Shown here: piece after piece, positions 10,640 to 64,000 of the stretch | How positions within the stretch are numbered: position 1 is the first letter of the stretch | How the letters are laid out: each line of letters opens with the position of its first letter | Assembly: GCF_002878395.1 (NCBI RefSeq) | Contig: NC_061111.1 | Location: 29,187,789 to 29,251,788 of the forward strand | DNA length: 64,000 nucleotides | Direction: 5' to 3' | Origin: Capsicum annuum | Taxonomy: Eukaryota > Streptophyta > Magnoliopsida > Solanales > Solanaceae | The notes under the pieces: model-generated | What the model was told of the DNA's origin: nothing | The model's database searches: none | Seen by the model: the letters and a program-made list of their open reading frames with translations, nothing else | Translations under genes and position numbers: made by a program

Positions 10640-10800
10640 ATTTAAACAGATAACTTATCTGATGCATCAGATAAGTAATTTGTTGCAATAGAGTATTTAT
10701 CTGTTGCATTGGACTGATTATCTGTTGCACCAGATTGATTATCTGTTGCATCAAACTTCATATCTGTTGCAACAGATGATTAATCTATTTGGAACAACAC
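10640..10800. repeat. ATCTGTTGCAACAGAT palindrome array 1
   Basis: At least seven full, half or variant sites in 160 bp (TTATCTGATGCATCAGATAA, TATCTGTTGCATTGGAC and similar). The exact 16-bp palindrome is at 10762-10777. Spacing is irregular, about 20-25 bp. Confidence 0.85.
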
Positions 10801-11342
10801 AAATCAGCCCCTGCCACAAACCCAATAGATTACCAATATGTTTCAACTCTTGTTATTGCTACTGGATTCAAAATTATTCCTTACGTCCAATTACCCATCC
10901 CAATATTCCTAATTTGATTTCTCATTTTACTTGTCTCTTTTCATTAATCAAGAACAGATAAAAAAATTCATGTTTTACCCTTTGCCTTAATCACTTTTTC
11001 TTTAAATTAAAATGTAAACATCATTCGATAGGGAGACTATACGCCGACCCACGTTAAAAGCTTTCTTCTCTTATGAAATTTCGATTGAGTAGCAAACAAT
11101 GGTTATTTCAAACACCGTCTACAGTCCCACCAACTGATCAACCCCTGCCACAAACCCAACAGATAAATCTTGCTATTGCTACTGGATTCTAAATTATTCC
11201 TTTTTACGTCTAATTGTCGACATGTTTGTTGAGAAGATAATAGACAGAATGAAATTAAATATGAATTAAAACGTCAAAGTTGTTCAAACATAATTTTTTT
11301 ATTAAAAAAAATACATATACATAGACTAAAAGAAAAAATAAT

Positions 11343-11552
11343 TTAGTTATTATTATTATTATTATTATCATCATCATCATTGTCAGCCGACCAACCTTCA
11401 ACCGTAAGTAGCAAGGCCCTCCTCAGCCTGCGGATCTCACGGAGCATTCTTGTTTTAACTGCTCTCAGTTCCCATTGCAGGTCACGAATCTGATTCCGAA
11501 GTTCATTCATGATGTCTTACAGAAAAGCAACATTCTACACTGGATCAGCCAT
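11343..11552 (-). pseudogene. Small Asn-tailed coiled-coil gene, copy 1, with stops
   Basis: From ATG at 11508-11510 the frame gives 55 residues: a basic amphipathic helix (NELRNQIRDLQWELRAVKTR, then REIRRLRRALL) and a tail of four Asp and seven Asn encoded by a trinucleotide repeat. The same frame continues upstream to ATG at 11550-11552 as MADPV-stop-NVAFL-stop-DI, which aligns with the MIDPCSYKKIHIDSL start of copy 2. Two stops therefore separate the original start from the helix. Minus-strand AAG/GTAAGT at about 11661 suggests a 5'UTR intron. Family unknown. Confidence 0.55.
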
Positions 11553-11767
11553 AATCTAGAACACATATGAATTGATAAAAAACTTAAAAATAAAAGTAAA
11601 GATCTTAAGACTATCCAAATATAATACAACGTATACTACAAATTGGAAAGAAAAAACTTACCTTAGTCAGGGGAGAGAAAGTGGTGGAAGTCCAAGTGTA
11701 ATATGAAAAACGAGATGCAATAAATAAATAGAGTGTAATTGAATGAACGATTGAGTAAGGAGGGACT

Positions 11768-11775
11768 TATTTATA
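11768..11775 (-). promoter_or_regulatory. TATA box upstream of copy 1
   Basis: TATAAATA on the minus strand, about 215 bp upstream of the original ATG with a putative 5'UTR intron between. An identical box precedes copy 2. Confidence 0.5.
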
Positions 11776-11810
11776 GAGGATTGAATTTGAATGAGAGGCA
11801 AAAAGGCGCG

Positions 11811-12295
11811 ACTGTTCACCTCCATTTATTAATTATATTTTTGATTTTGATTACTGTGAATAGTTATGACTTAATTAATTTAATAAAAGAAATATTGTGA
11901 TAAGTCATGACTTTTCAGATTATTATTATTAATTAGTTCTTTTCAAGAACCATTTTTATTGAGTTGTGACAACAGATTCTATATCTGTTGCATCAGATAA
12001 TTCATCTGTGACAACAGATATTTCATCTGTTGCAACAAATATAAAACCTGTTGCATCAGATAACCTATTTGTTTCAACATATAATCTAACTGTTCACCTC
12101 CATTTATTAATTACATTTTTGATTACTGTAAAAAGTCATGACTTAATTAAATTAAAAAATATTGTGATAAGTCATGACTTTTCAGATTATTATTATTAAT
12201 TAGTTCTTTCCAAGAACCATTTTTATTGAGTTGTGACAAAAGATTCTATATCTGTTGCATCAGATAATATATCTGTTGCAACATATAATCTATCT
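11811..12295. repeat. Two tandem 278-bp units containing palindrome motifs
   Basis: Unit 1 starts at ACTGTTCACC (11811) and unit 2 at the same word (12089). Both share CTCCATTTATTAATTA, ATTGTGATAAGTCATGACTT, TTTTATTGAGTTGTGACAA and a short ATCTGTTGCATCAGATA array. The palindrome array was duplicated together with its flank. Confidence 0.85.
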
Positions 12296-12324
12296 TTTTT
12301 ATAAAAAAAACTATTATCATATCA

Positions 12325-12588
12325 TTAATCCAAATTTACTGACTTTTTTATTATATGAATTATAAAAAACACCTTTTCAATAATCGTTTCTTTAATAAAA
12401 TAATAACTATTTTTATTTTCTGGCAACAAATATAATGGACGGTCTATTTTAATAGCTTTTTTGATTTCTTCTAACAGCTGATACATCAGTCGCAACAAAT
12501 GGGGAATTTGATGCATCAGCAACATTGTTGAATGTATGTGTTTTTGTTTTAGACAAAAAGTCACGACTCTTCTCCTTCTTCTTAACAA
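12325..12588 (-). other. Unrecognised open stretch of 87 codons
   Basis: Open frame starting MLRRRRRVVTFCLKQ, between the two Asn-tailed genes. It runs through palindrome-type sequence (TGATGCATCAGC), has no recognised domain and may be chance. Low support as a gene. Confidence 0.15.
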
Positions 12589-12948
12589 TCATCATATAAC
12601 TTAATTAATCCAATGTTGCGACTTTTTTAAATTAATTAATCTTTCTTTTAAGGTTATAAATTGTGTATATCATTTAGTTCCTTATTATTTATTAACGAAC
12701 CGGTTTTAGGAGAATCATGACTTTTCACCACCCTCTGTTGCCACAAGTGCACAATCCCTACCTCCAACCGTCGACATATTCAGAACAGGAAATAAATAGA
12801 ATGATAATTAGATATTAAATAAGTATTAAAAATGCAGAGTCGACCAAACAAAACCAAACAAAACATATACATAGATTGTTTAATCCCTTATAGGTAGATC
12901 CGATATAAAAAAGAAAATACATACGCTAAAAGAAAGAAAAAACATAAC

Positions 12949-12983
12949 TTAATTATTATTACTACTATTATTATTATCATTAC

Positions 12984-13038
<55 letters not shown>

Positions 13039-13203
13039 TCTATTATTATTGTCAACCGGACAATTTTCATCCGGCAGCATCAGGGTCGCCCTCCTCAGCC
13101 TTGCTCCGAAGTCGGCCAAATCTCTCTGGAATTTATCAAACTGCCTTTGAAGTTCCCGTAAGGAATCGATATGAATCTTCTTGTACGAACATGGATCAAT
13201 CAT
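12949..13203 (-). CDS. Small Asn-tailed coiled-coil protein, copy 2 (84 aa)
   Basis: Uninterrupted ORF from ATG at 13203: MIDPCSYKKIHIDSLRELQR, a helical segment QFDKFQRDLADFGARLRRAT, then a poly-Asn tail with a few Asp, Arg and Ser from an ATT/AAT microsatellite. A TATAAATA box (13266-13273) sits about 63 bp upstream of the ATG, a sensible distance. It is the intact relative of copy 1, 1.6 kb away on the same strand. No known domain. The helix is too short to name a family. The Asn tail length equals the microsatellite length and should vary between individuals. Confidence 0.5.
12953..13051. repeat. (ATT)n microsatellite inside the coding end
   Basis: Nearly uninterrupted ATT triplets in frame with the small gene, encoding its poly-Asn tail. 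A shorter version is at 11346-11381. Confidence 0.95.
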
Positions 13204-13265
13204 ATTTGTACTGTAAGTGTAGTAGAATGAACGAGTGAGAGTAAGGAAAGGAGGCCGAAGGAACC

Positions 13266-13273
13266 TATTTATA
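13266..13273 (-). promoter_or_regulatory. TATA box for the 84-aa gene
   Basis: TATAAATAGG on the minus strand, followed downstream by a short leader and the ATG at 13203. Confidence 0.55.
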
Positions 13274-13449
13274 AATGATTAAATTGGAAGGGGTAGGCAA
13301 ACAAAAAGCCACGACTGTTCATGTATCCCTTAATTAAATGAAATTGATGACTTTTCGAATATGTAAATTAAAAAAAAGGGATCTAAATACAACATTTTAT
13401 TTTTTTATTGTATTTTAGAAAGAAAAGAAAATTACTTTAAAATAAATCT

Positions 13450-13580
13450 AACAGATGGGTAATCTGTTACAAAATATATTTCATCTGTCAGATAACTTAC
13501 AAAATATTGACAATCTGTTGCAACAGATGGATATATCAGTTTGTTTTTTCAATAGATATGGCGTCTATTGCAACTTGCTA
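13450..13580. repeat. Palindrome array 2
   Basis: Several ATCTGTT/AACAGAT sites, with the exact 16-bp palindrome at 13513-13528. It lies just outside the left arm of the large inverted repeat. A similar array (16840-17010) lies just outside the right arm. Confidence 0.8.
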
Positions 13581-14659
13581 GTCATCTATTTATTCAATTT
13601 AAGTCATAGATGGTCTAGTAAGAATAAGGTGTGTGCAGATGGATCCACTATCATATGTGTGCGAGTTAAGAAGTATTACTGATAAGGTCACCGGGACAAC
13701 ACACATAAAGTACAATGTTTTGGTGAATGTAATTTTTAACTGATTAGGCAATGATCATTCAAGCAAGATCCTGCATTGTACAGTTAAGTTTGATGGGTTT
13801 GAATTGACAAGGTTGAGGGCCTCATGAATATGGTGTAGATACCCTGTTACGAATTACTGACGGCTGTTGCTCGTGTTTATACGTGTCAAATTTTAAGAAT
13901 GGATCAATATTTAGTGTCATTGCAGAGAACCAATAACAATTGGACTTAACTTTAAGTGTGTATTAGACTCTGAGAACACCTTCGAAACCTCGAAATGCAT
14001 CAAACAAGAATGAAAAACCAATAGAAATCCCCCTGGCCCAAATTTATATAAAGGGTTGATCAAGAAGATGATTATACGCCAGAAGGAGCCGAAGGAGAAT
14101 GCCTGTGAGGAAAAGGGGATTTGATGAAAGACTATATCATGTGAGAGCTAATTGAAAAGGAGACATAGGGTAGAAAGTAACTTCTAGCGAATCTAGCCGA
14201 TGAAATTATCTTAAAACAACATCAGAAATCTAAATCAAGTGCAAATATGAAAGTGCATTCGGCTATGTAAATTCGTCTGTTGTCAGTCTGAAAGAAAAAT
14301 AATGTAGATGGACACTTTTCTAGGGAGCTGCAACTAGGTAGCGTAGTCGGGATTATCACCCAGATAGAAAATAATAGAAGACCAAGAAAGCAGCCTTACG
14401 GGCATCGAGGGTTGAAATAATGTATAGTAAGTCTATAAAACTTGCACCAAAATCAACTGTAGTTAAAGTAAGGAATCTAAGCGAAGGCGGCAATTTCTAA
14501 ATTTTAAATTTCATCCCATGCTTTCTTGTTTATGGTTTCGATTAGGTCCACTACTGTTGACCTGATTGGAACTACAAATGAGATTGAAAGACAGATTGAT
14601 GTCATTACTTCCTTAACAATATGGATTAATTGATTGTGTTTTCTTGCCTTAACATACTT

Positions 14660-14960
14660 TCAACATTTCTTGGAGAAGATTGAAGGTTTGCTCTATTTTG
14701 TGAATTTCGATAATTTTCAACCTTGCCTCCAGCTTGCTGATTCTATATTCAAGCTGGTTGTTGCCGTCTTCAAAGTTGGTATAGAGTTCCTGATATCTTG
14801 TGAGCTCGATCAAGAACACTACCTTTAAAGTTGTGGCATTGAAGAAGGCCTTCAGAACACTTTCTTTAGAAGCCTTGAAAGATACACAGAGGGTCGCTGT
14901 GTTTGTTTTAGGTCAAAATGTGTTGATGCACACTCAAGATGTGGTCCCAACCATTGAATA
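14660..14960 (-). pseudogene. Coiled-coil gene fragment, left arm
   Basis: Minus-strand frame with FLIELTRYQELYTNFEDGNN and QLEYRISKLEARLKIIEIHK, ending EQTFNLLQEML and a stop. It is a strong heptad-like, charged helix. The matching fragment on the plus strand of the right arm (15573-15833) reads RDQELYLNFEVGNDPLEYRI. The parent gene is not recognised. It looks like part of a longer protein, since both ends run into non-coding sequence. Confidence 0.45.
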
Positions 14961-15572
14961 ACTCACTTTTATCTAGAGTTGCTCAATGAAGCTTGCTCAA
15001 CCAATTTGATAAATTAATAAGCAAGGAGTTATGTAGCATATAATCTAAACCGGCTCTACCAAGCCTATCAAACGTTACGTAACTCCAGACTCATTACACT
15101 ATCAAAAAAAAATTGACAGAGTTGGTGCACAAATCAAACGAGCTAAATCTCTCAGCCTTTTTGCTGATCGCTCTTCTCCAATTATAGATGATAAGATATC
15201 TGCTATGCAATAGTCTACATCGTAATCTCTCGATATCACTTGGTATTGATAGATTACTAATGATGCCTTCAGAAGACCTTTCTCCCTGGCAAGTATTTCT
15301 GGAGACGGTGTAGACTTTTGCATAACAGATATCTTGTTATCTATATTAGAGAAGAGCGATCAACAGACATGCTAAGAGATTTAGCTCTGATTTGTGCATC
15401 AACTTTGTCAAAATTTTTTAATAGTGTAATGAGCCTGAAGTTACGTAATATTTGATAGGCTTAGCAGAGTTGGTTTAGATCACACACTACATAACTCCTT
15501 ACTTATTAATTTATCAAATTGGTTAAGCAAGCTGCATGGAGCAATGCTCGATAAAAGTGAGTTGTTCAACGG

Positions 15573-15833
15573 TTGGGACCACATCTTGAGTGTGCATCAA
15601 CACCTTTTGACCTAAGACAAACACAACGACCCTCTGTGTCCTTTAAGACTTCTGAAGAAAGTGTTCTGAAGGCCTTCTTCAATGCCACAACTTTGAAGGT
15701 AGTGTTCCTGATCAAGATCACAAGAGATCAGGAACTCTATTTAAACTTCGAAGTTGGCAATGACCCGCTTGAATATAGAATCAGCAAGCTGAAGGCAAGG
15801 TTTAAAATTATCAAAATTCACAAACTAGAGTAA
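15573..15833 (+). pseudogene. Coiled-coil gene fragment, right arm
   Basis: Right-arm partner of the fragment at 14660-14960, here still open for 86 codons from a chance ATG. It contains ESVLKAFFNATTLKVVFLIK and the QELYxNFE...LEYRISKLKAR helix. The two copies differ at many codons (for example TRYQ against TRDQ), so the inverted duplication is not recent. Confidence 0.45.
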
Positions 15834-16369
15834 GCCTCTGATCTTCTCTAAGAAATGTTAAAACCATGCTAAGGCAAGAAAACACAATCAATTAATCCAT
15901 ATTGCTAAGAAAGTAATGACACTCAATCTGTCTTTCAATCACGTTTGTAGTTTTGATCAAGTAAATAACAGTGTACCTAATTGGAACCACAAACAAAAAG
16001 GCATGGGATGAAATTTAAAATTCAAAAATTGCCGCCTTCGCTTAGATTCCTTATTTTAACTGCAGTTGCTGTTGGCGGAAGTTTTCTAGACTTACTATAC
16101 GTCATTTCAACCCTTGATGCCCATCAGGTGTCTTTCTCGGTCTTCTGTTATTTTCTATCTAGGTGATAATCCCGACCACACTACCTAGTCGCAGCTCCTT
16201 AGCAAAGTGTTCATCTGTACTATTTTTCTTTTAGAGAGGCAATAGATGAATTTACATTGCCGAATACACTTTCATACTTGATTCAGATTTCTCATGATGT
16301 TTTAAGATAATTCCATCGGCCAGATTCGCTAGGAGTTACTTTCTACCCTATGTCTCCTCTTTAATTAGC

Positions 16370-16530
16370 GCTCAGATGATATAGTCTTTCATCAACCATC
16401 TATTTTCCCTCAAAGGCATTCTCCTAACGCACTTACTGGAATATAATCATCACCCCGAGCAACCCAACCATATAAATTTGGACCTACCAACATTAAATCT
16501 TAATAGGGTATCAGGACCACATTCATGGTC
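16370..16530 (-). pseudogene. XS-domain-like fragment (SGS3/FDM/IDN2 type)
   Basis: Minus-strand translation contains GPNLYGWVARGDDYIPVSAL followed by GECL-stop-GKIDG-stop-stop-KTIS. Plant XS-domain proteins of the RNA-directed DNA methylation pathway end this domain with an LYGWxARxDDYN segment, then GExLRKxGDLKT. The spacing and residues match, and the stops sit where relatives have Arg or similar codons. The left arm carries the same stretch (GPNLY near 14040), more damaged. The match covers only about 40 residues, so the family call is tentative. Confidence 0.5.
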
Positions 16531-16584
16531 CCTCAATCTTATCTGTTTGGACTTACCAAACTTAACTGTAAAATTGCAGATCTC

Positions 16585-16790
16585 TTATTTGCATGATCTA
16601 TGACTAATCTGTAAAAAAACATTCACAAAATCAGTGTACTTTATGTGTGTTTCCACAATTACATTATTAGTAATACATACCTCCCATATATGAAGTGGTT
16701 CCATCTGCATGCAACTTATTTCTCCGAACTCATCTTTACTGCAGCCTCTTGTGATGGTCGGACAAAAGTTGATCAAATGTTAGTTCCTTA
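16585..16790 (-). pseudogene. Upstream exon of the inverted-repeat gene fragment
   Basis: Frame with CPTITRGCSKDEFGEISCMQ and MEPLHIWE followed by GTATGT, a good donor. The next segment after TTTTTTACAG (about 16612) would be the acceptor leading toward the XS-like piece. A left-arm counterpart exists at about 13600-13640. Not recognised further. Confidence 0.35.
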
Positions 16791-16839
16791 TATCTACAAA
16801 GAAGAGGAATAAAATAATGTCACAGAAAGAACATTATTC

Positions 16840-17010
16840 ATTTGTTCAACAGATGTCGAATCTATTGCATCAGATGTAGAGTCTGTTGCAAAATATGTGG
16901 AGTCTATTACAATAGATATGGAGTCTGTTGCAACAGCTTTGGAGTCTGTTGGAATACATCAAACCAGCCTTGTGGTTTGATTTGTTCCAATAGTTGCTCC
17001 GTCTATTGCA
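16840..17010. repeat. Palindrome array 3
   Basis: Five or six sites of the form TCTGTTGCAA/TCTATTGCAA, with half-sites pointing both ways, immediately outside the right arm. Confidence 0.8.
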
Positions 17011-17757
17011 ACATCAACAACAACATAAACTACAAAGAAATAACAAATAAAAAAATATCAACAACAAAGAAACAACAACATTTGTTCCAACATCATCAAC
17101 AATAAAGAATCAACATTCTTTGTTCCAACATCATCAACAATACCACACCACAACTTCCAACAACGCCAATCCCACCAACAATATCAATAACAACATAAAC
17201 AATAAAGAAACAATCAAAATACATACCAAAAAATGATACTGCCAACAAGGCTTTTAAGCTTCTCCCAATAGAATACTTTTTTCACATATTTTAATAAAAA
17301 TTCTTAGTTCATTTATTCAACACTAAAAAGTTTCTTCAAAAATTCTAAATAAATATCATATGGGTAAATGGTAATTATATAAAAAAAATAGATGTAAATA
17401 ACTTACAAAGAATAAGACGAGAATAAAAGATCAATAGTGAACCATACCTTAACATCAAAATGGGATCAAAACAATAATTTTAGTCGAGAAAAGATATAGA
17501 TCGGTTTTGATCCAAAAGGATCTTTATGAAAAAGAGAATAGAAAAGAGAGAAGAGAGAAAAAAGATTATGATAACCCTAAGCTAAAGAGAAGAGAAAGAA
17601 AAAGATTAGAGATGAATAAAATAATTTTAAGGCTGAAGCTGAGGAGAGATAAGATAATTCTAGATGTATCCTGTACGTAAACGTGGGTTTCAATATTCAT
17701 TAATTAATATAATTAATATTCATTAATAATTTGAGGGGAACGATGAAGACTAGTTAA
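17010..17757 (-). other. Possible 5' leader of a minus-strand gene; otherwise non-coding
   Basis: Plus strand is CAACAA-rich (17010-17220), then AG-rich (17520-17600). Read on the minus strand it is a CT-rich leader with CTTAGGGTTATC and later AAG/GTATGG, a donor. This resembles the leaders of the B and C genes and would fit the start of the gene whose fragments form the right arm. No long ORF. Confidence 0.35.
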
Positions 17758-18715
17758 CATTAAAAAGACAAAATAAGACTACACAATGAACACATTTTTG
17801 AGTTATCCAAGAAAAAGAAACTCTTCATTTTTTACCGCATTTTGTAGTACTTACTACTTTATCTACTCGGACAAAATCTTGCTTTAAAATTGAAAGAAAA
17901 AAAGATTTTCAAAGAGATATGTCATCTGTTGCAACAGATAGCAATATCTGTTTACAAATCCCAATAGCACAGTCATCTATTACAACAGATACAAATATCT
18001 GTTTAATAAACCTTTTCCATTTGATAATTAAATATATCAACTGTTACAATATATATCAATATCTATTTAAATATCCCAATATCTCAGTAATATGTGACGA
18101 CAGATACAAATATCCATTTGATAATTAAATATCTATTGGTATCTGTTGTAACAGATGACTAGTGACATTGAAAAGACAAGATAAGACTACTCAATGAACA
18201 CATTTTTGAGTTATCCAAGAAAAAAAAGCTCTTTATTTTTTACCGCATTTTGTAGTACTTACTACTTTATCTACTCGAACGAAAACTTTCTTTAAAATTG
18301 AAAGGAAAAAAAGATTTTCAAATAGATATGTCATCTGTTGCAACAGATTACAATATCTGTTTAAAAATTCCAACAACACAATCATCTGTTACAACAGATA
18401 CAAATATATGTTTAAAAAACCCTTTCTATTTGATAATTAAATGTGTCAACTTTTACAACAGATATCAATATCTGTTTAAATATCCCAACAGCTCAGTCAT
18501 CTATGACAACAGATGCAAATGTCCATTTAATAGTTAAATCAGATATATCATCTGTTACAACATATACCAATATCTGTTTGAAAATTTCCAACAGCTCAGT
18601 CATCTGTCATAACAGATTTAAATATCTATTTGTTAATTAAATTAGATATGTCATCTGTTGCAACAGATGTGAATATCTGTTAGAATTTCCACCACCACAG
18701 TCATTTGTTCTAACA
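17757..18715. repeat. Two tandem about 409-bp units with palindrome arrays 4 and 5
   Basis: Unit 1 begins ACATTAAAAAGACAAAATAA (17757) and unit 2 ACATTGAAAAGACAAGATAA (18166). Each has a non-motif half (TTTTTACCGCATTTTGTAGT shared) followed by an array of ATCTGTTGCAACAGAT, ATATCTGTTTAAA and CATCTGTTACAACAGAT. Exact palindromes at 17924-17939, 18333-18348 and 18653-18668. Chance reading frames in the array (for example 17919-18128, 18298-18537) are repeat products. Confidence 0.85.
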
Positions 18716-18730
18716 TATTTTATTGTAATT

Positions 18731-19582
18731 GATTTAGGTGGAACTAGGGATGAATAAATGAGATCATAGGGTCAACTACAACTTCAATTGAATCTTTGTA
18801 ATTGGCATTGGTATTGCGTTCATCCCAACCTGAGTCGTCGATCGATCACTCTGAGTTGAAATGAGCTCTCATTAACTTAATGTTAGAATCAATATTACCT
18901 AAATTGATTTAGGTGAAACTAGGGATGAATGAATAATCTTATAGGGTCAACTACAACTTCAATTGAGTCTTTGCAATTGGCATTGGTATAACGTTCATCC
19001 CAACCCTGGTCGTCGATCGATCACTCTGAGTTGAAATGAGCTCTCATTAACTTAATGTTAGGATTAATATTACCTAAATTGATTTAAGTGGAACTAGGGA
19101 AGAATGAATGAGCTCATAGGGTCAACTACAACTTTAATTTAGTCTTTCCAATTGGCGTTTTTATTGGTTTCATCCCGACCTGGGTCGTCGATCGATTACT
19201 CTGAGTTGAAATAAGCTCTCATTAACTTAATATTAGGATTAGTATTACCTAAATGGATTTAGGTAGAACTAGGGATAAATGAATGAGATCATTGGGTCAA
19301 CTGCAACTTCAATTGTGTCTTTGCAATTGGCGTTCGTATTGCATTCATCCCGACCCGGGTCGTCGATTGATCACTCTGAGTTGAAATGAGCTCTCATTAA
19401 CTTAATGTTTGGATTAATATTACCTAAATTGATTTATGTGGTACTAGGGATGAATGAATGAGCTCATAGGGTCAACTATAACTTCAATTGAGTCTTTGCA
19501 ATTTGCGTTGGTATTGCGTTCATCTCGACCCGGGTCGTCGATCGATCACTTTGAGATGAAATGAGATCTCATTAACTTAATA
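18731..19582. repeat. Satellite: five tandem 175-bp units
   Basis: Units start at 18731, 18906, 19081, 19256 and 19431, exactly 175 bp apart. Each holds GATTTAGGTGGAACTAGGGA, CATAGGGTCAACTACAACTT, GTCGTCGATCGATCACTCTG and GAGCTCTCATTAACTTAAT. The same family reappears inverted at 63240-64000. The array directly precedes the leader of gene B1, as the inverted array does for B2, so it belongs to the composite element and not to the neighbouring DNA. Confidence 0.95.
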
Positions 19583-31017: not shown

Positions 31018-31055
31018 ATAAGTAGTAATATAATAAATAATAAAAATAATCTATA

Positions 31056-54355: not shown

Positions 54356-57000
54356 ATGGATCCCAAAATAATAGAAACTGAATCAAGTCCAAGTAAAGGA
54401 ACAAGTGAAGCAACTAGGCTACATCACTACTCTATAAACTTGCTTTACAAGCGTTATCTCAATCAGGAGCAGAATCTGATAAACACGGGGAGGAAGAATG
54501 TTTTAAAAAAGATGATCCAAATGCTAATAGCCCTTCCACCAAAGATTTGGTCAAAACCTTTAGCATTGATCGTCATCCTGTGAGAATGCAGTGTGATGGT
54601 GCCACAGATTTATGAGTGATTTCGTGGTTAAGTCAGTCATGAAAAAATCTTTTGACGCCCTTAGAAAAATACTTCGAGAACAGAAGTTGGATGCTTATTT
54701 CAAGGACAGGTGCTTTGGGAAATATCTTGATTTGTCGGAGGACAACAATGCTCATTTCCAAAAGAAAATGGTATATGAACTTCTCACGCGTAGATTTATG
54801 TATAAAAATAAAGATAAGATGGATGAGGTGTGGATAAATTACTGTGGCAGGCCTGTTTGTTTTGGTTGGAAGGAGTTTTCCATATTTACTGGACTAAAAT
54901 GTTAACCTCCTTCTCCTTCTCAAGTTATACCTATTCTAACCCCAAAAATGCACCCCCGCACACTCAAAAAAGGCAAAGAAAAGTCATGCGATCATGATGA
55001 ACTGGTGTCCATTTTTCGCCAAAGCTTGAAAAATAAAAATTTAATAGAAGCGTTGAAAGGTAAAGGACTTTCAAAGAAGCACAAGCAATCATTGTGCTTG
55101 GTTTGGTTTGTACATAATATTTTTTGGGCGAGAGACGTTAACAATAATATAAGTGTTGGTTTAATAAAGCTCTCCGAGGATCTTGAGGCACTTAATAGCT
55201 ATCCTTGGGGTTATGAAAGCTTCAAAATGACTGCCAAATATTTGTTGACTCTATTAGCGCCAAAGACAGTCAACTTATATGGATTTCCATGGACTTTCAT
55301 GATAAATGTTTCTTTCTTTTATTATGATATCATTTATTTTTTTTACACAATAATGGTTTTGATTTATTAGCGTTATTTTATAGGCTTGGGCATTAGAAGC
55401 CATTTCTTATTTGAGACAACAAGTGAACTACTAGGAAGAAGTTTTCTGTCTAAGAATTTTGAGATGGTTGTTGGCCAAAACTGATAATAATGTAAAATTT
55501 CTTGGTCTCTTCAACCCCCGAAGGATGTAGTAAGTATAATTATAATTAAGTTTTTATTTTAATTAATGATTTTTTTGAATGATCTAATCATCATTCTAAA
55601 ATATGTAATGATTTATGTTAGATTGTGCATCCGTCGCTAGTTCTGACTAATCGAGAGTTGAAGATGCCATTTTTTTCTTACTTTACGATCTGTACAAACT
55701 TTATCAAACCCTAAGGTCATTGACAGAATAAAAATAGAATTTTTTGGAGCAACAACTATTACAAGAAAAATAATTTTGGAGGGTGGGCTTGTTGTTGTTG
55801 ATGGTCTTAGTGGTGATGGAGCTGTTGGTAGTGGTAGAGGTGCTGATGTTGGTGCTAATGATGCTCCTCTTATAGTATTTAAAAGCAAATCTATATGAGT
55901 ATGATCATACTGGTTATACAGATTTTACCTCTCCCAGCGAATGTTTTGCATGCAAATGTCAAGACTGCAAGGTGAAACATGATGTAGTGATTAATGTTAT
56001 TAATGTATTAACTGCTTTTATAAATGAATTGACATCTAAGAGGAGTGTGAATCCATCAAAGAAGATTTTATATTCATCCACTCCATTAGAGATTAAGGCT
56101 AAGAGGAGAAGAAAAGTGATTTCCAAGGCATTATCAAGGATCTAAAAAAGCAAAATTGCAACTCCTCTGTCTGTGTGTTGCACTGAGCAATGTACAATAT
56201 CCAAAGGAGAGTAGCACGAGCTGAAGAAGGTTAATATATATGTCTATTCCAACTAACAAATAGACACATATCTGTTTCAATACATGACACATCTACTGAA
56301 AATTATCAAACAGATATATACATTTATTGCAATAATTGACTAACTTGTTGCACCAAATAAAGTATATGTTACAACATATGTCTCATCTATTTTAGCAAAT
56401 GAAACAGCTCTTCATACCATTTTTATTTGTACCTACAAATGACCTATCTGCTGTAACAGATGAGTCATATATTGCAACAGATGGTTCATTCGTTGGAAAT
56501 TATCATACAGGTCTTCCTCATGTAGAAATTTGTCCCAACAGTTGATTTATTATTGCAGAAGAAATATAATCTATTTGGGATAATTTAAAATATGAGGAAA
56601 ACCTGTTTGATTTTCTAGAGCAGATGAGTTATCCTTTTCTATTTTTTTATATCTCAGTGATTAGCATTGACCAATTCTGGCTTTCCAGGTGGATATAGAA
56701 GCTACTGCTGAACAACATTGACAATATGCTACTCTTTTTATGAAAATACAGAGAACAAAAAGTATAGAAACCGTATTCAGTACATCTTTATAGCTTGAGT
56801 TTGTCAAATTAATAACCTCACCCCTCCTTAGGAATCGTTGGCATCAATATTTAAATTGTTGAGATCTGCACCCATAACAATTTTTTTACATTTCATTTAT
56901 TCCTTGATTTATTTCAGCTAATTTCTGAAGGCTTCAATTTATTTTATTTTGTCTATGAATTTTATTTTTTCCTTAGATTTGAACTTATTAATTAAAATGG
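54356..57000 (+). pseudogene. DUF1985/Ulp1-like gene C2, Ulp1 exons deleted
   Basis: Starts [20 protein letters not shown], shifts frame by one base near 54425 relative to C1, has TGA at 54613 (C1 reads DLTGDFVVK there), then DUF1985: CFGKYLDLSEDNNAHFQKKM, FGWKEFSIFTGLKC, LCLVWFVHNIFWARDVNN, YPWGYESFKMTAKYLL. The intron donor after FPWTFM reads ATAAAT instead of GTAAAT (G-to-A at 55302). The middle exon (about 55640-56160) is equivalent to C1. Then VDIEATAEQH joins almost directly to 3'UTR-like sequence (about 56750-57000) that matches C1 24250-24400, so the whole peptidase part is lost. Confidence 0.75.
56230..56560. repeat. Palindrome array in C2 intron
   Basis: Same intron as the C1 array at 25880-26200, with variants of ATCTGTTGCAACAGAT and CATATGTTACAACATATG. 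Confidence 0.8.
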
Positions 57001-57009
57001 AATATTAGA

Positions 57010-57345
57010 TTCAAATATTACAATAGATAATGTATCAATTACAACAGACGATACATCTGTTGGAAAATATCAAACAAATTTAGACATATATTGCAACAGG
57101 TAGGTAATCTGTTGAAATTTATCAAACAAGTCTTCCCACTATTGCAATAGAGACTTAGATAGAAATATTGACATAATGCAACAGATGATCAACCTATTGC
57201 AACAGATAAATTATATGTCAGAACAGGTAGAATATCTGTCACAATGGATGGAGAATTTATTGCATTATAAAAATTCAACTTTCATTGGACATACAAAATT
57301 ACCACTACATGTAAAAAAGTGAAAGTGAATTGAAATAAAAAACGC
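57010..57345. repeat. Direct repeat, left copy, with palindrome array
   Basis: Shares ATCAAACAAATTTAGxCATA, TTGACATAATGCAACAGATG, GAACAGGTAGAATATCTGTC and TTGCATTATAAAAATTCAAC with 58490-58795. The pair flanks the GRF-zinc-finger pseudogene, and the right copy continues into the 3' end of gene B2. Confidence 0.8.
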
Positions 57346-58485
57346 GAAACTCTTCGACAGTGTTTAGTTCAAACACCTAAAATAAAATAGGCATCAAGTA
57401 GACGGTGTTCATTTTAAACAAGTAAAATAAAACAGCCATCAAATGTGTCAGTTTGGCATTTTTGCCCTGTTGGATGCTTGCGTGTAATTCACACTGCCAA
57501 GCTAGCTGAACCCCTATTTTTTCTGACTTGACATCTGATTTGGCCCCTAACGGTGATTTTTTCCTCCATTGTCTTATATATTCATGTTCTTCCTAAATTT
57601 TAACCCTAAATCCCCAAATCTTCTTCTTTATTATCATCTTTTTTATCTATCCAAATTCTTCAACTTATTTGCATTTGGTATTTCTTTTCTTTCTTCATCT
57701 TGTTTTCATTTTTTTCAACCAAGCTTAACAATGTCGAGCGCATCTTCCACTGTTTTTTATGATAAAGATTTTCGATATTATAAGTGCTGTCATGAAGCTC
57801 TATTAAAGACTTTTTGAACTCAACAAAATCCAGGTCGTAGGTCTTTTTACTTTTAAGATTTCAAAGGTAATATTTTCTTTATTTAATTAGTTGATTAATT
57901 ATTGACTTGTAATTATTTTGTAATTGTGTTCTTGTTTTTATAGAAATTGGGTGGATGCGATTACTTTGATTGGTATAAAGAATGATACCCTTCACAAGAA
58001 AATCGTGTAATCTAGGGTTTGTTGAGGAAAGTCNNNNNNNNNNNNNNNNNNNNNNNNNNNNNNNNNNNNNNNNNNNNNNNNNNNNNNNNNNNNNNNNNNN
58101 NNNNNNNNNNNNNNNNNNNNNNNNNNNNNNNNNAAGATTTCAAAGGTAATTTTTTTTTATTTAATTAGTTGATTAATTATGACTTGTAATTATTTTGTAA
58201 TTGTGTTCTTGTTTTTATAGAAATTGGGTGGATGCGATTACTTTGATTGGTATAAAGAATGATACCCTTCACAAGAAAATCGTGTAATCTAGGGTTTGTT
58301 GAGGAAAGTCAAGGCTTCTGAAGAGAAACAAAATCGAGCAAGAAGATACTACATTGTTGTCGTTATTGCTGCTGGTTTGGTGTTGTTGGGCACATGGATA
58401 TTCAAGCCTAATTGCTGAAATTTTCATGGTGGTGTATGTGCTACTGGTTTGGTGTTGTCAAGCACATGGATATTCAAGCATAATT
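57346..58485 (+). pseudogene. GRF-type zinc-finger gene remnant
   Basis: From ATG at 57731: MSSASSTVFYDKDFRYYKCC, HEALLKTF-stop-TQQNPGRRS, a donor in AAAG/GTAAT, an intron, then (after TTTTTATAG) KLGGCDYFDWYKE. That is the plant GRF zinc-finger layout (CxCG, NPGRRF, C, GCxxFxW). Downstream follow LLRKVKASEEKQNRARRYYI and VVVIAAGLVLLGTWIFKPNC, a membrane-anchor tail. Stops in both finger exons kill it. The duplicated second exon and the 100-N gap fall inside it. The upstream part (57360-57600) with GATGGCTGTTTTATTTTAC-like text is a promoter or leader. Confidence 0.65.
58034..58133. other. Assembly gap of exactly 100 N
   Basis: Placeholder gap. The 179 bases before it (57855-58033) and the 177 bases after it (58134-58310) are the same sequence apart from small indels in T runs, so the two contig ends overlap. 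Confidence 0.98.
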
Positions 58486-58489
58486 ATTA

Positions 58490-58795
58490 AAAAATATCAA
58501 ACAAATTTAGGCATATGTTGTAAAATTTAGGTCATCTGTTGGAAATTATCAAATAGGTCTACCAACAATTACAACAGATTAGACTTAATCAGATAGAAAT
58601 AACATCGACATAATGCAATAGATGACCAACCTATTGCAACAAATAAAGTATCTACCAGAACAGATAGAATATATATTACAATAGATTGACAAAACTATTG
58701 CATTATAAAAAACTCAATTTTCATTAGAAAAAAATTATTGCCTCTACATGTACATGTAATTTAAAGTAAAGTGAAGTGTGACTTGAAATAAAAAA
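58490..58795. repeat. Direct repeat, right copy, with palindrome array
   Basis: Partner of 57010-57345. It lies immediately downstream of the B2 stop codon, matching the B1/C1 space at 23820-24245. Confidence 0.8.
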
Positions 58796-58798
58796 TTG

Positions 58799-59485
58799 TT
58801 ATTTCACAGGCTCTTCTATATATACAGGATCCAAGCGTCCAGTTAGTACCTCATAAGCCCAGGCCTCTTGTAGGTTTGCCATAACGTTGTCGCACAAAAA
58901 GGTCATTGGCTCAGCCATTTCTGTAACGATTAGAAAATATTCAATGTGTGCAAGAGCGGACGAGTCGTACGTGAAACTTGTATTATTTTTTGAAAGGTTC
59001 ATGCCCTTTCTTAGACCTTTAAAATCCCATGATTTCTTCATCAATACTTTTTCTAGAAAATGATTCATCATTTTACTCTCCCTCAATAAGATGGGAAACA
59101 TCTCCATCAGTGGTTGCATGTGGATAAAAAGAACAACCTCATCGATGACAGGTTTGTTGTAGTCATAAACTTTGATCTTTCCCTTCTCGTGTAGTATCTC
59201 AACAACCCGATAATGTATGTCGTCCACACTCATGACTGCAAGAATCCTCTTTGCCTTCGTCCAGCTCTTGCAGTGTAGATTTGGCCTCTCCCCTCTAACA
59301 TATTTTATCATTTCTTCTTCAGCACAGTCCAACATAGAAACTAACAAATAAAATCCCATGCCATAGGCTAACGTTTGATTATTAAGTTGGTCATACTTAT
59401 CCTTGAGCTTCTTGCGGAAGTTGAGTTCTATTATCCTATAGGCAGCGTCATAAGCTTCTGGGTACACTATTTTCCTTTTCCTCAT
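58799..59485 (-). CDS. Ulp1-like C-terminal exon of B2 (228 codons open)
   Basis: Open from MRKRKIVYPEAYDAAYRIIE to EEPVK-stop. Contains KYVRGERPNLHCKSWTKAKR, then IHYRVVEIL (His of a C48-like fold) and KVYDYN (Asp), but where DCG-x-F is expected it reads YDSSALAHIEYFLIV, with Ser where the nucleophilic Cys should be. A peptidase-like fold without the Cys would be a binding domain at best. The preceding intron ends near 59510 (TTGCCAACATACTATGAT). It is the longest uninterrupted coding stretch in the window. The whole gene is still broken upstream. Confidence 0.6.
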   Translation of the reverse strand: MRKRKIVYPEAYDAAYRIIELNFRKKLKDKYDQLNNQTLAYGMGFYLLVSMLDCAEEEMIKYVRGERPNLHCKSWTKAKRILAVMSVDDIHYRVVEILHEKGKIKVYDYNKPVIDEVVLFIHMQPLMEMFPILLRESKMMNHFLEKVLMKKSWDFKGLRKGMNLSKNNTSFTYDSSALAHIEYFLIVTEMAEPMTFLCDNVMANLQEAWAYEVLTGRLDPVYIEEPVK

Positions 59486-59559
59486 GAGGCAGAGAATTTT
59501 GCCAACATACTATGATATAAGAAGGTAACTTTTAAATAAGTTAGCAATTGTAAAGATTC

Positions 59560-59720
59560 AATGGATGATCCATCTGTTGCATAGGGTTCTCTGAATCAGT
59601 AATCCAATGCAACTTATGTAATAGATGGATAATAAGTTGTAACAGAACCACTACCAGTTGCACCTGAATACCCAGCTATTGTAACAGATTTTACATCTGT
59701 TGTATAACTTCTTCTTCATG
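59560..59720. repeat. Palindrome array in B2 intron (small)
   Basis: ATGGATGATCCATCTGTTGC, GTTGTAACAGAACC, ATTTTACATCTGTTGTATAA, in the intron before the Ulp1 exon, matching B1 22920-23010. Confidence 0.75.
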
Positions 59721-60599
59721 GAGTAGATTAGAAGGTTAGGTTAGGAAAAGTAAACTTACCTTATCCTCGTACCGCATACGCATATCTATCATAGTCTGGA
59801 AGTCTTAGGGAGAATGGAGACATAGGGTAATCTGGTGTGCCTCGTTTGTCATTCTTAGCCCACCGTAGATCTCTCTTCTCTTTGGCGCCAAGTTTCCCAT
59901 ATATGTCCAACTTTTTGAATGGATCATGAACTTTAATAGCTTTTAGAGAGGGAGAAGTTGTAATTTTTTTTATTTTCAACTGGAGAGTACGTCGCTAATT
60001 GCTCTTTTCTTCATCCTAACCGCCGATGTAGTAGTGTATGGCTCCCTCACCTTCTTGGATGGTATTATACCCCTCTTTGATTTGAATTCCTCAACAGCTT
60101 TAGAGATAGCCTCTACATTTTCAAAGAGTTTATCCTGGCTGCCCTTGCACTCTTTGTATTTGCAACGAGAACACGATGGTGAAGAGGGGTGAGATAAACC
60201 TATGTAAGGGTGAGAGGGACCTGCGAAAGGGGTGTTTTCAAACATATTTATTTTTTCTTGAGTATCAACATGCTCATCATCCTGAGTGGTAGAAGCATCA
60301 GCATGTCTGCCACCATCACCAACAACTCCACCAAAAGAAACATTCGGATCTGCCTCAGTAGGTTGGTCATGAAGAGCCTCAACATTAGGCTAACCTTGTC
60401 TAACTGCTCTTCTTATGGCTGTTGCTCCAGCCAATTCCTTCTTTATTAACTCCACCATTAGATCTACTATAGTATCAATATGACCTAGAGTAATAAAAGA
60501 AGTCATCACCAACTCCTGCTCAGTAGGCATGATCCATGGAAGCACAACCTATAAAAATATGACAGATACATTTAAATCATATAATATAATAATTTTTAC

Positions 60600-61090
60600 A
60601 GTTGGGTTACATGTTAACACAGTCAACTTCTGCAACAGCTTAACAATATGTTGCATCAGATTACCCATCTGTTGCATAGTTTGTAGTAGATGGTTAAAAT
60701 TTGTTTGAGTCGAGTTCAGATAACCAGAGCAACACATGGATAATTTGATGCAAAATATCAATCATTTGTCGCAATAGATTACCAATATGTTGCACTAGTT
60801 GCACAAGATGGGTAATCTGTTGGGTTACATATTATGCAACAGATGATTTGTATGTTGCAATAGGTTAATAATATGTCACATCAGATTACCCATCTGTTGC
60901 ATAATTTGCAATAGATGGTTAATCTATTAGGAGTCAGGTTCAGAGAACCAAAGAAAAAGATGGGTAATCTGATGTAATGTATTAATCATTTGTAGTAACA
61001 GATCATCCATCTGTTATATTGGTTGGCACAAAACAGGTAATATATCGCAACAGATGTACTATCTGGTGCATTAGATATAGCATCTATTCA
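60600..61090. repeat. Palindrome array in B2 intron (large)
   Basis: About 490 bp of sites such as CAGATTACCCATCTGTTGCA and GATGTACTATCTGGTGCATT, in the same intron as B1 21680-21960. Confidence 0.85.
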
Positions 61091-61881
61091 ATATCTTTCA
61101 TTGAGTAAAATTATTTTACTTGAAGAAGATGTACTGCATCATTCAGAGGGTTAAAGAGATCAACCTCCATAATTTTTGAATTGTTCTTTGCAACCAACCA
61201 CCTAAACATCCTTGGATGAGAAACCTCATCTGAGTAATCCATTACCTACTTTTAAAGGGGAGGAATGACTTCAAATGCCCAAGCCTAAAAAATGTAAATA
61301 GGAAGCAAGCAAAAATAAAAGTCATACTCTAATAACTATATTCAATATAAATTAATGGATGGGTAAAAATAGTGATTAATTTTACCATGAAAATCGTATA
61401 ATGTGGTCGTCCCTGAGGATGACTTTGTCAGTAAATATTGGACAGTCAAGTAAAAGTTATTGTATTCCCGAGGATAATTGTTGAATTTATTAAAGTCCTC
61501 AGCATGTGCCAATAAATCATCTTCTATGACCTTGCTGACGTCTCTTGTCAATATAACTGAATGACCAAACCAAACTAAGCAGAATTGCTCCCTGTACTAC
61601 TTCGGTATGGTTTTATCCCTAAGATCTATCAACAAATTCGATGCTTTGAATCCACGTCGAGCAATGTCCAACAACCCATCTATTTTTTCCTTGCGTTTAT
61701 TGGTTTTGCTGCTTGCCTTGGATCTTTTGCAGGGTGTTTTTTTGGAAATAGGTGGTTTTTCTGGATGGTTGCATCTCAAGTCCATCACTATGGCAAACTC
61801 TTGCAAGCTAAAACAAACCGGTATGCCACAGTAGTTGATTCAGAATTTATCCATCTTTTTACCCCCTCCTTCGAATCTTTA

Positions 61882-62463
61882 TCATCCCTTATGTACTTGA
61901 TTATGCGCTTGAGAAGACCATATACCATCCTTATTTGGATACGGGCATGGGGTTGGGGGGTCCTCAGGCTTCTCAAGAAACCATCCAAAGAAGCTCCTTT
62001 GAAAAAGTTCGTCTATGTTTTCTATCTTTATAATAATCCTAAAATAATTAAAAGGTTTTCCCAACTGATATTTAAGTGTAATTTCACCAGTTAGTTTTTG
62101 TTTATTTGCAGGGTCATCTATCGGCATCACAGCTTTAAACTTGTCAATACTAAAAGTTTTGACAGGATGATGCTGGCATGTCGATATTAATTCCCGCCCG
62201 ATTGGTGATCCATTATCATCCTGTTGATGATCATCTTCTTTCTCACTCTCTAATTCCTCCTCTTTCTCACTTTCATTTTTTTCATCACCATCTACAGACC
62301 CTTGTCCACCTCCCTCAATGTTGTTTTCATATCTCTCCTTAGCTTCACTTTTTTCTGACTGAGATTTTTCAGGAAGCTCCTCCGAATCCCTCTGTACAGT
62401 AGCCTTTTTTGTTGGGTGGTTAGATATTGACTCACTTTCACTTTCTTTTATTTTAGGAGACAT
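61882..62463 (-). pseudogene. N-terminal exon of B2
   Basis: 193 codons open. The first 100 residues are rich in Glu, Ser and Lys (KNESEKEEELESEKEDDHQQ). The DUF1985 start follows. The frame is lost after PPTPCPYP, where the next frame gives RIQIRMVYGLLKRII, a 1-nt frameshift near 61930. The same start (MSPKIKE) in B1 supports this ATG. Confidence 0.65.
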
Positions 62464-63239
62464 ATTTTACCTACAAACAATAGAAAAATAAAAATTACAT
62501 TACAATTAATGTATGCATAAATTTCAAAAAATACGTTACAAACGCCACCAATACGACACACCAACAACCACTACCACAAACACCACCAACCAATGCCACA
62601 AACACCACGAATACCAACACCGCCAACAGCTACCATAAACACCACCAACCAATGCACCACAAACACCACCAATCAATGCCACCATCAGCCACCACCAGTG
62701 CCACCATGACGGCCACCAACACTATCCAATAATACTACGATAGTCAACAGAACACTACGATAAAAACTAGGATTTTCTTGAGTTCTTTCTGCGACTTTAC
62801 CATCAAAACTCAAAACTGTAAACCCATTCTCGAAGATAATACAACTAAATATTTTATTTTTCATCATTAACTTAAAAGCCCTTATTTTTTAGAAAAAAAA
62901 AAATATAGAACTCTTCTCAAACTCTGTTACCTACAAAGATAGAGAAAACGACTAATACAAGCAATAATGAAGTCAAAAATAACACCTATATGGTCAAAAA
63001 TGAGAAGAAAATTGATCTGTTGTGAAGGATTGAGCAATTTGTTGAGTAGTTATTATCTGTACTGTATTGTTGAGAGAGAGAAAAGAGCGAGAAATCGAGA
63101 TTTGAAATGATGAAGTGTTTTTCTCGCAAAAGGAAAATTTGTATTTTGGAAAAGAATGACAAGTTTTGAAAATATTAATTTGGTTCGAATTGATCTTAAT
63201 TATTTTTAAAATTATAAAAGATATACATAATTTTTAACC
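62464..63239 (-). other. Leader of gene B2
   Basis: CCACCA/ACCACAAACACC-rich stretch (62530-62720), then a leader with CTCTCTCTCAACAATACAG on the minus strand (about 63070-63090), the same layout as the B1 leader at 19583-20479. The open frame 62685-62867 is in the leader and unsupported. Confidence 0.55.
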
Positions 63240-64000
63240 CTCTCATCATGCAATTATCAAAAGACTCAATTGAAGTTGTAGTTGACCCTATAAAAACTCA
63301 CCCCTAGTACTAGATTAATCAATTAAGGTATTAGTCTAACATATAAACTCAATTAAAATTGTATAAAAATAAATGCTCAACCTATTACAATTGATAAACT
63401 ATCTGTTGTAAATTATCAATCAGATTAAGTCATTTGTTACAACAAATTACCCATCTATTGTAAATTATCAAACAAATAGTCATTTGTTATGATATATTAC
63501 TAATTTTTTCTAAATTATCAAATAAATTAAGTCATCTATTGCAACAGATTATCCATCTGTTATAAATTATCAAATAAGCGCTGCTATCTATTGTAGTTGA
63601 CCCTATGAGAACTCACCCCTAGTCCTGGATTAATCAATTAAGGTATTAGTTGAACATATGAGGTAATAAGAATCCGTTTAGCTCAGAGTGATCGATCAAT
63701 AACTCTGATCGGGAGGAACGCAATACCGTCTCATCATGCAATTTCCAAAGGACTCAATTGAATTTATAGTTGACCATATGATAACTCACCCCTAGTCCTA
63801 GATTAATCAATTAAGGTATTATTTGAACACATGAGATAATAAAAATTGGTTCAGCTCAGAGTGATCGATCGATAACTCTGGTCGGGAGAAACACAATACC
63901 GTCTAATCATGCAATTTCTAAAAGACGCAATTAAAGTTTTAGTTGACCTTATGAGAACTCATCCCCGGTCTGAGATTAATCAATTAAGGTATTATGTGAA
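63240..64000. repeat. Inverted copy of the 175-bp satellite, with palindrome array
   Basis: Read on the minus strand it gives the units of 18731-19582: GTGAGTTxTCATAGGGTCAA, CGATCGATCACTCTGAG, CAATTGAGTC. Partial unit 63240-63345, then a palindrome array (63370-63590), then more than two units to the window end. Relative to the first array the unit has diverged (for example GCTGAACCAATTTTTAT in place of the GAGCTCTCATTAAC stretch). Confidence 0.9.

What the first reader, a model, noticed from the sequence alone, without database searches (positions are those of the whole stretch)
10640..63590. Dispersed 16-bp palindrome ATCTGTTGCAACAGAT packed into introns and spacers of the Ulp1-type elements
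Seen: more than 15 arrays of this motif, full palindrome exact at 10762, 13513, 17924, 18333, 18653 and 24012, plus a great many half or variant sites (ATCTGATGCATCAGAT, TCTATTGCAA). In the B and C genes the arrays lie in the 5'UTR intron, the intron after DUF1985, the intron before Ulp1 and the space between the convergent genes, at matching places in both copies, while exons are nearly free of sites. Inference: the motif is either a self-spreading palindrome tolerated only outside exons, a binding site for an element or host protein, or an RNA hairpin in introns. I know of no named plant repeat with this word.
Basis: partly seen in the sequence, partly recalled or inferred. Interest (0 to 1): 0.88.

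Follow-up and report, generated by a model that had tools for sequence, protein, structure and literature searches.

The report
Pepper transposon's arrayed anti-silencing landing sites
The repeated 16-letter palindrome is the private address tag of a large family of jumping genes in a pepper genome, most likely the docking site by which the element's own proteins keep it from being switched off by the plant, as is known for VANDAL elements of Arabidopsis.

Summary
In detail: 106 sites within three mismatches against 0.68 expected, all six exact positions correct, and 8,836 exact copies genome-wide against 0 for the reversed word. The motif marks one transposon family. The window holds two insertions with 9-bp target-site duplications: B (10075-29595) and C (52360 to 78568, beyond the window). 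In nine further loci with a mapped end, 208 sites lie inside the element and 1 outside. The ends share no inverted repeat. The elements carry two DUF1985 genes with Ulp1-like parts; copy C and locus L010 keep a MULE transposase. Sites are about tenfold rarer in exon-like sequence and mostly spaced by multiples of about 10.5 bp. A neighbouring DUF1985/Ulp1-like/MULE element (A) has a different word, AAATACATATG, with no overlap. This is the anatomy of VANDAL elements, whose VANC (DUF1985) proteins bind family-specific noncoding motif arrays and remove silencing marks. Best explanation: a VANC-type anti-silencing system of Capsicum with a palindromic target. Anatomy is shown; binding and demethylation are inferred. 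New member of a known kind, notable for the 16-bp palindrome and copy number.

The parts
10075..29595 (+). Element B, complete 19,521-bp non-TIR MULE-like insertion carrying the motif arrays (68 sites within 3 mismatches)
   Evidence: 9-bp direct repeat ATGTTACTC occurs only at 10066-10074 and 29596-29604 in the window; all 20 sampled motif loci align to it; 68 sites
10066..10074 (.). Target-site duplication, left
29596..29604 (.). Target-site duplication, right
52360..64000 (-). Element C, second copy in inverse orientation; only this part lies in the window, it runs to 78568 in window coordinates
   Evidence: TSD TTGAAACAT at 52351-52359 and at 78569-78577; left-end sequence found beside the latter
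52351..52359 (.). Target-site duplication of element C (window side)
10657..10777 (.). Motif array, left subterminal; steps of 21 bp and multiples
11983..12500 (.). Motif arrays
13462..13528 (.). Motif sites incl. exact 13513
16860..16938 (.). Motif array
17924..18668 (.). Motif array with many 51/52-bp steps, exact sites 17924, 18333, 18653
18727..19581 (.). About 175-bp tandem repeats upstream of gene 1 (related repeat in C at 63594-64000)
20668..23810 (+). Gene 1: DUF1985 followed by Ulp1/C48-like part (block 23114-23810); degenerate
   Evidence: Pfam DUF1985 in 21037-21462, 39.6 bits, above cut-off (the piece 20698-20994 alone has no Pfam match); tblastn with Capsicum proteins, plus strand
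21688..21754 (.). Motif array between exon-like blocks after DUF1985
22939..22996 (.). Motif sites before the Ulp1-like exon block
23918..24208 (.). Motif array between the convergent genes, exact 24012
24461..28067 (-). Gene 2: DUF1985 exon block 28061-27113, further exon-like blocks to 24461 matching Capsicum proteins with DUF1985 and C48 domains; degenerate (in-frame stop, frame break)
   Evidence: Pfam DUF1985 in 27095-27424, 51.2 bits; minus strand in every block. Pfam was not run on the Ulp1-like blocks of this copy
25901..26164 (.). Motif array in gene 2, at and beyond the end of the exon-like block 26088-26801
28206..28948 (.). Motif arrays upstream of gene 2
53046..54195 (.). Motif arrays upstream of gene 2 in C, with ATCTGATGCAACAGAT variant
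54356..56370 (+). Gene 2 of element C (DUF1985 pieces 54597-55367 and following exon-like blocks)
56270..57207 (.). Motif sites between the convergent genes of C
58763..62217 (-). Gene 1 of element C (Ulp1/C48-like part at 58802-59509; exon-like blocks 59812-60629 and 61117-62217)
   Evidence: Peptidase_C48 only 17.4 bits, below Pfam's 20.7, but homologues P0122 and P0127 pass it
60646..61076 (.). Motif array between exon-like blocks of gene 1 in C
63432..63549 (.). Motif sites in C
2439..5509 (.). Neighbouring element A: arrays of a different word AAATACATAT(G); 25 exact AAATACATATG in window coordinates -9999..10066, no ATCTGTTGCAACAGAT site within three mismatches
4536..4988 (-). DUF1985 piece of element A (separate clade; further Ulp1-like exons from about 460 leftwards beyond the window start, MULE/SWIM transposase left of the window)
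   Evidence: 23.1 bits, below Pfam's 35.1, but homologues P0202 and P0211 pass it

Best explanation
The palindrome is the target motif of a transposon-encoded, VANC-type anti-silencing system in a VANDAL-like (non-TIR) MULE family of Capsicum. SHOWN: the motif is confined, in the loci examined, to one element family, lies mainly in its noncoding parts, is arrayed in helical register, and the elements carry DUF1985 genes with Ulp1-like parts plus, in fuller copies, a MULE transposase; a second family beside it has its own word. INFERRED: one or both DUF1985(-Ulp1) proteins bind ATCTGTTG|CAACAGAT, probably as a dimer because the site is two-fold symmetric. Many dimers on one face of the DNA give cooperative, density-dependent occupancy of introns, spacers and subterminal DNA. 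Binding there removes DNA methylation and other silent marks from the whole element, including gene-less derivatives that keep the arrays, so the transposase genes can be expressed and the family can move without unsilencing the rest of the genome. The arrays grow and change by tandem duplication, so each family drifts to its own word together with its protein.
For: Family-limited motif: 8,836 exact sites, 0 for the reversed control; 20 of 20 sampled sites lie in DNA that aligns to this family; 208 sites inside and 1 outside mapped element ends in 9 loci. MULE hallmarks: 9-bp TSDs on three copies (B, C, L013), no inverted repeat between the two ends of B above shuffles, PF10551 MULE plus SWIM zinc finger in copy L010 with a homologous transposase in copy C. 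DUF1985 above Pfam cut-off in both genes, DUF1985 and Ulp1/C48 domains in Capsicum homologues. Noncoding placement, about tenfold. Helical phase: 56 spacings not multiples of 21, R=0.61 at 10.5 bp, p~7e-10; 199 in the 20 loci, R=0.61, p~3e-33. Motif positions alike between arrays (identity 0.448), linkers near chance (0.293; chance 0.276). A second family has an exclusive word: A side 25 A-words and 0 B-sites; B 0 and 68; C side 0 and 56. Precedent: VANC proteins (DUF1985) of Arabidopsis act through different short words arrayed in introns, spacers and ends of their own VANDAL families; for VANC21 by ChIP-seq and EMSA, for VANC6 from hypomethylated regions and in vitro binding to a motif-dense region (PMC5735166). 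A review says that Ulp1-bearing VANC genes do so too (passages of PMC13317346).
Against: No binding, methylation or expression data exist here. Which of the two DUF1985 genes, or the transposase, binds is unknown. The copies in the window are degenerate. The C48 match in the window and the DUF1985 match of element A are each below Pfam's cut-off on their own. A predicted structure was too poor to test for a DNA-binding fold (pTM 0.30; no PDB match at E<=0.001). For element A the 16-bp palindrome is not the consensus (the right half is weak) and helical phasing is marginal (p~0.001 with exact words, n=24; p~0.14 with one mismatch, n=52). The genome-wide DUF1985 survey that would test protein-motif pairing across many clades did not complete. 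Spacings are not independent, because arrays share ancestry.
Confidence: 0.8

Rival explanations
1. The arrays are binding sites of the element's transposase (as with subterminal sites of other plant DNA transposons) and serve excision or transposase-driven activation.
For: Sites occur in subterminal DNA, e.g. 10657-10777, and fuller copies encode a transposase. PMC10398659 (passages) notes that Spm TnpA activation correlates with demethylation and that maize MURA causes hypomethylation.
Against: Many sites lie kilobases inside a 19-26 kb element, between exon-like blocks and between genes, where they are of no obvious use for end recognition; the closest precedent (VANC) shows the same placement.
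Confidence: 0.09
2. Passive minisatellite: a 21-bp unit that expanded by slippage in a high-copy transposon and is tolerated outside exons, with no function.
For: TRF finds tandem arrays with periods such as 21, 42, 51 and 93 bp; copy-specific variant enriched in C.
Against: Linkers are hardly more alike between arrays than chance while motif positions are; several spacing classes share one helical phase; the neighbouring family has an analogous array of another word.
Confidence: 0.06
3. Host transcription-factor sites captured by the element (the half-site holds CTGTTG, which resembles an R2R3-MYB core; this resemblance is recalled, not tested).
For: Short plant-TF-like half-sites, palindromic symmetry (inspection only).
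Against: Exact word found in this family in 20 of 20 sampled loci, different word in the neighbouring family; a host factor would not be expected to change from family to family.
Confidence: 0.03
4. An RNA hairpin in introns (processing signal or small-RNA source).
For: Any palindrome can fold as RNA; some sites lie within transcription units.
Against: No excess of compensatory changes: 19 symmetric double changes against 32 expected in 197 sites of B and C, 97 against 134 in 476 loosely chosen neighbours; both selections bias against compensation, so this is absence of support rather than exclusion. Sites also lie in subterminal and upstream DNA; DNA-helix phasing has no meaning for RNA. No folding run was made.
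Confidence: 0.02

Closest known systems
VANDAL21/Hiun and VANC21 of Arabidopsis (PMC5735166; parts 1-3 of 6 of the text read)
   Same: MULE-type element with transposase and a DUF1985 gene; short family-specific word arrayed densely in introns, spacers and ends; arrays evolve by tandem repetition with copy-specific variants
   Different: Arabidopsis words are 8-9 bp (YAGTATTAY; AGTTGTCC/AGTTGTAC); here a 16-bp perfect palindrome. Here two DUF1985 genes with Ulp1-like parts per element, elements of 19-26 kb, 8,836 exact sites in a 3.2-Gb genome. Binding (VANC21) and demethylation shown there, not here.
Ulp1-bearing VANC genes (KIU/Kaonashi) in non-TIR MULEs (passages of review PMC13317346; Sasaki 2022 not held, Hoen 2006 not looked up)
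   Same: VANC-type gene carrying an Ulp1/C48 domain in a MULE without terminal inverted repeats; motif-directed anti-silencing reported for them
   Different: Species and motif; membership of the same protein clade was not tested here
MULE-Solanaceae_1 (table row in PMC6446971, passages read)
   Same: 9-bp TSD, no TIR, SWIM domain, extra ORFs
   Different: Phylogenetic placement of this transposase not tested

Membership tests
Mutator-like DNA transposons (MULEs) | 9-bp target-site duplication | tested here: met
   Three copies: ATGTTACTC (B), TTGAAACAT (C), CACTAACTT (L013)
Mutator-like DNA transposons (MULEs) | MULE transposase (PF10551, SWIM) | tested here: met
   L010 frame read with stops as X: PF10551 1.8e-11, SWIM 8.9e-8; homologue in copy C outside the window. 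Copy B lacks this region relative to L010
VANDAL (non-TIR MULEs) | no or degenerate terminal inverted repeats | tested here: met
   Local alignment of the left end of B with the reverse complement of its right end scores no better than shuffles at 50, 100, 200 and 400 bp; aligned ends of other copies
VANDAL (non-TIR MULEs) | transposase falls in the VANDAL clade | not tested
   no tree made
VANC anti-silencing system | element encodes a DUF1985 protein | tested here: met
   PF09331 above cut-off in gene 1 (39.6 bits) and gene 2 (51.2 bits) of B and in gene 2 of C (49.7 bits); element A 23.1 bits, below cut-off, with homologues above it. The window copies are degenerate
VANC anti-silencing system | protein is a VANC orthologue | not tested
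   no Arabidopsis VANC sequence was compared
VANC anti-silencing system | dense arrays of a short word in noncoding regions, specific to the family | tested here: met
VANC anti-silencing system | related families use different words | tested here: met
   element A: AAATACATATG, no overlap; same pairing at one further locus (L038); two families only
VANC anti-silencing system | helical periodicity of motifs (recalled from Sasaki 2022, not held) | tested here: met
   for this motif; inconclusive for element A
VANC anti-silencing system | protein binds the word and causes demethylation | not testable with these tools
   needs EMSA/DAP-seq and bisulfite sequencing

The most novel reading that the evidence does not exclude
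This Capsicum family uses an operator-like, two-fold symmetric 16-bp site bound by a DUF1985 dimer, perhaps a heterodimer of the two convergent DUF1985-Ulp1 genes, stacked on one DNA face every 21 bp to form a long filament-like array, an architecture beyond the short words of Arabidopsis; and a large part of the pepper genome's DUF1985/Ulp1 'genes' together with their gene-less derivatives form one motif-addressed anti-silencing network.
Probability: 0.3. Interest if true: 0.68.

Novelty: new member of a known kind. Interest (0 to 1): 0.5.

Why it matters
It would extend experimentally known, sequence-specific transposon anti-silencing from Arabidopsis to a 3.2-Gb Solanaceae crop genome with thousands of ready-made target sites, and it gives a precise word, a spacing rule and candidate proteins, so that 'what does DUF1985 recognise, and does a change of protein change the word' becomes directly testable with two families lying side by side. 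It may also explain many Ulp1-type gene models annotated in pepper.

Tried and rejected
Structure: AlphaFold2 on an alignment of 31 homologous proteins (30 named Capsicum, one unnamed) gave pTM 0.30 and no PDB match at E<=0.001; nothing is drawn from it. RNA hairpin: no compensatory signal, with the bias stated. Element A was first taken to have an equally palindromic motif; its consensus is an asymmetric 10-12-mer with a weak right half, and the exact 16-bp palindromic form is only modestly enriched genome-wide (172 against 14 for the reversed control). A first exon count with a lax definition (two proteins' support) gave 43 of 239 sites in 'coding'; that set included predicted proteins that translate the arrays themselves, so a stricter definition was used (thresholds 5, 10 and 20 proteins, ratio 11.2, 10.5 and 8.7). 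In the count of sites inside and outside mapped ends I used nine loci; L017 (end at base 25, almost no flank) and L011 (only a 41-46-bp end match) were left out. The control stretches gave no hit to the element proteins, but L033 has a 111-bp match (74%) to element B at 10903-11009. Note entry 3 says 8 of 20 loci with DUF1985/Ulp1 homology; the table shows 7 of 20. Literature searches: (the word itself: 0 papers).
Full report
WHAT WAS CHECKED. The word ATCTGTTGCAACAGAT occurs 6 times exactly and 106 times within three mismatches in the window, where 100 dinucleotide shuffles gave a mean of 0.68 and a maximum of 3. In the whole assembly (3,211,630,282 bases, 80,840 contigs, unnamed) there are 8,836 exact copies, and none of the reversed, non-complemented control word.

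WHERE THE WORD LIVES. I fetched 10-kb stretches around 20 exact sites, chosen from the head of the list on contig 1, so not a random sample of the genome. All 20 hold arrays (8 to 46 sites within three mismatches), and all 20 align to parts of window 10.06-29.6 kb. 7 of 20 carry DUF1985 or Ulp1-type homology and two others a MULE transposase (L010 by Pfam; L011 by tblastn). Ten 3-kb control stretches at arbitrary places on the same contig held one weak site in 30 kb and no hit to the element proteins; one of them has a 111-bp match to element B.

THE ELEMENT. A 9-bp repeat, ATGTTACTC, occurs exactly twice in the window, at 10066-10074 and 29596-29604, and brackets the region to which the loci align: element B, 10075-29595, 19,521 bp. 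Copy C lies in inverse orientation, with TTGAAACAT at 52351-52359 and again at 78569-78577 next to the family's left end: 26,209 bp including stretches that read N. L013 is a third copy: 8,265 bp between two CACTAACTT, with no detectable DUF1985, Ulp1-type or transposase homology, yet all 41 sites lie inside it. In nine loci with a mapped end, 208 sites are inside and 1 is outside (55.1 kb against 35.0 kb; two further loci with an end left out, as told under Tried and rejected). The two ends of B share no inverted repeat above shuffles. Three 9-bp duplications and a MULE transposase domain (PF10551, 1.8e-11, plus SWIM) make it a non-TIR MULE. B lacks the transposase region relative to L010; C keeps a homologue at about 72.5-74 kb.

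THE GENES. Two convergent genes each have a DUF1985 block above Pfam's cut-off (strands). The Ulp1/C48 match of gene 1 in C is below the cut-off on its own (17.4 against 20.7 bits); homologues of both genes pass it. Capsicum homologues: 552 proteins for gene 2 (120 listed) and 78 for the gene-1 Ulp1-like part; every listed protein that bears a species name is from Capsicum. With the genome size this places the window in Capsicum (inference). The window's copies are degenerate.

PLACEMENT AND SPACING. Taking as exon-like what at least ten homologous proteins cover, 11 of 276 sites lie in exon-like DNA, 0.41 against 4.31 per kb; at thresholds of 5 and 20 proteins the ratio is 11.2 and 8.7. Neighbouring sites are 21 bp apart in 61 of 151 consecutive pairs (sites within four mismatches). 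Many of the other distances cluster near 31, 42, 52, 63, 73 and 84, with some out of register (28, 36, 37). Among spacings that are not multiples of 21, R at 10.5 bp is 0.61 (n=56, p~7e-10) and 0.61 in the 20 loci (n=199, best period 10.2; with one count per locus and spacing n=134, R=0.55). These p-values overstate independence, since arrays share ancestry. Stretches 21 bp away from strong sites (138, B and C) agree between different arrays at motif positions (0.448) but hardly more than chance at linkers (0.293 against 0.276): the word is what recurs, not the repeat unit.

THE CONTROL NEXT DOOR. Left of B lies another element, A, with its own DUF1985 clade (the window piece alone is below Pfam's cut-off), Ulp1-like exons and a MULE/SWIM transposase. 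From -9999 to 10066 in window coordinates it has 25 exact AAATACATATG and no B-type site; B has 0 and 68, the space between 0 and 1, the C side (to 74000) 0 and 56. A distant exact A-palindrome (L038) lies beside A-type DUF1985 and A-type transposase pieces and has no B-type site (1 of 1 examined). Two DUF1985 families thus carry two exclusive array words. A's phasing is only suggestive, and its ends were not mapped.

WHAT IS KNOWN. In Arabidopsis, VANC proteins (DUF1985) of VANDAL elements act through short words (YAGTATTAY, bound by VANC21 in ChIP-seq and EMSA; AGTTGTCC and AGTTGTAC, inferred for VANC6) that form dense arrays in introns, spacers and ends of their own family, evolve by tandem repetition, and direct loss of methylation (PMC5735166, parts 1-3 of 6 read). 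VANDALs lack or have short degenerate TIRs, though some relatives contain TIRs, and have 9-bp TSDs where indicated (PMC6446971, passages). A 2026 review says that Ulp1-bearing VANC genes also direct motif-specific hypomethylation and that Ulp1 capture dates to about the monocot-eudicot split, citing Sasaki et al. 2022 (PMC13317346, passages). That paper is not held; I recall from its abstract that sequence, density and helical periodicity of motifs set specificity, which would make the phasing found here expected rather than new. No held paper contains the word.

VERDICT. The finding is real and its most likely meaning is a VANC-type target array. What is new, as far as these searches reach, is the word, its 16-bp two-fold symmetry, the scale in pepper, and two families with exclusive words side by side. 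Binding and demethylation remain to be shown.

Noticed in passing
window 13609-16810: An inverted repeat (13623-13859 against 16491-16720, 75%) brackets a stretch found in other copies of the family (L011, L020, C side); it looks like a nested or internal sub-element within B.
   Followed up: partly
window 57855-58310: A 100-N gap at 58034-58133 is flanked by 179-bp stretches 98% identical in direct orientation, perhaps an assembly overlap rather than a biological duplication.
   Followed up: no
window 40714-41495 and 45230-46010: 785-bp direct repeats, 87.5% identical, about 4.5 kb apart in the space between B and C, possibly a degenerate LTR-type element.
   Followed up: no
P0085 and other Capsicum proteins: Some annotated pepper proteins look like gene-model artefacts: P0085 starts with what reads like a translated motif array (SSVATG), and homologues bear names such as EIN4-like, glycerol-3-phosphate 2-O-acyltransferase-like or 12-oxophytodienoate reductase.
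   Followed up: no
window 53046-53487: Copy C has a local variant ATCTGATGCAACAGAT (sixth base A in 10 of 20 sites at 52.4-54.3 kb), like the C- and T-type variants described for VANDAL21.
   Followed up: partly
window 17924-18668: In the 51/52-bp array the consensus unit shows a wider-spaced inverted pair of half-sites between the palindromes; it may be a second binding geometry.
   Followed up: no
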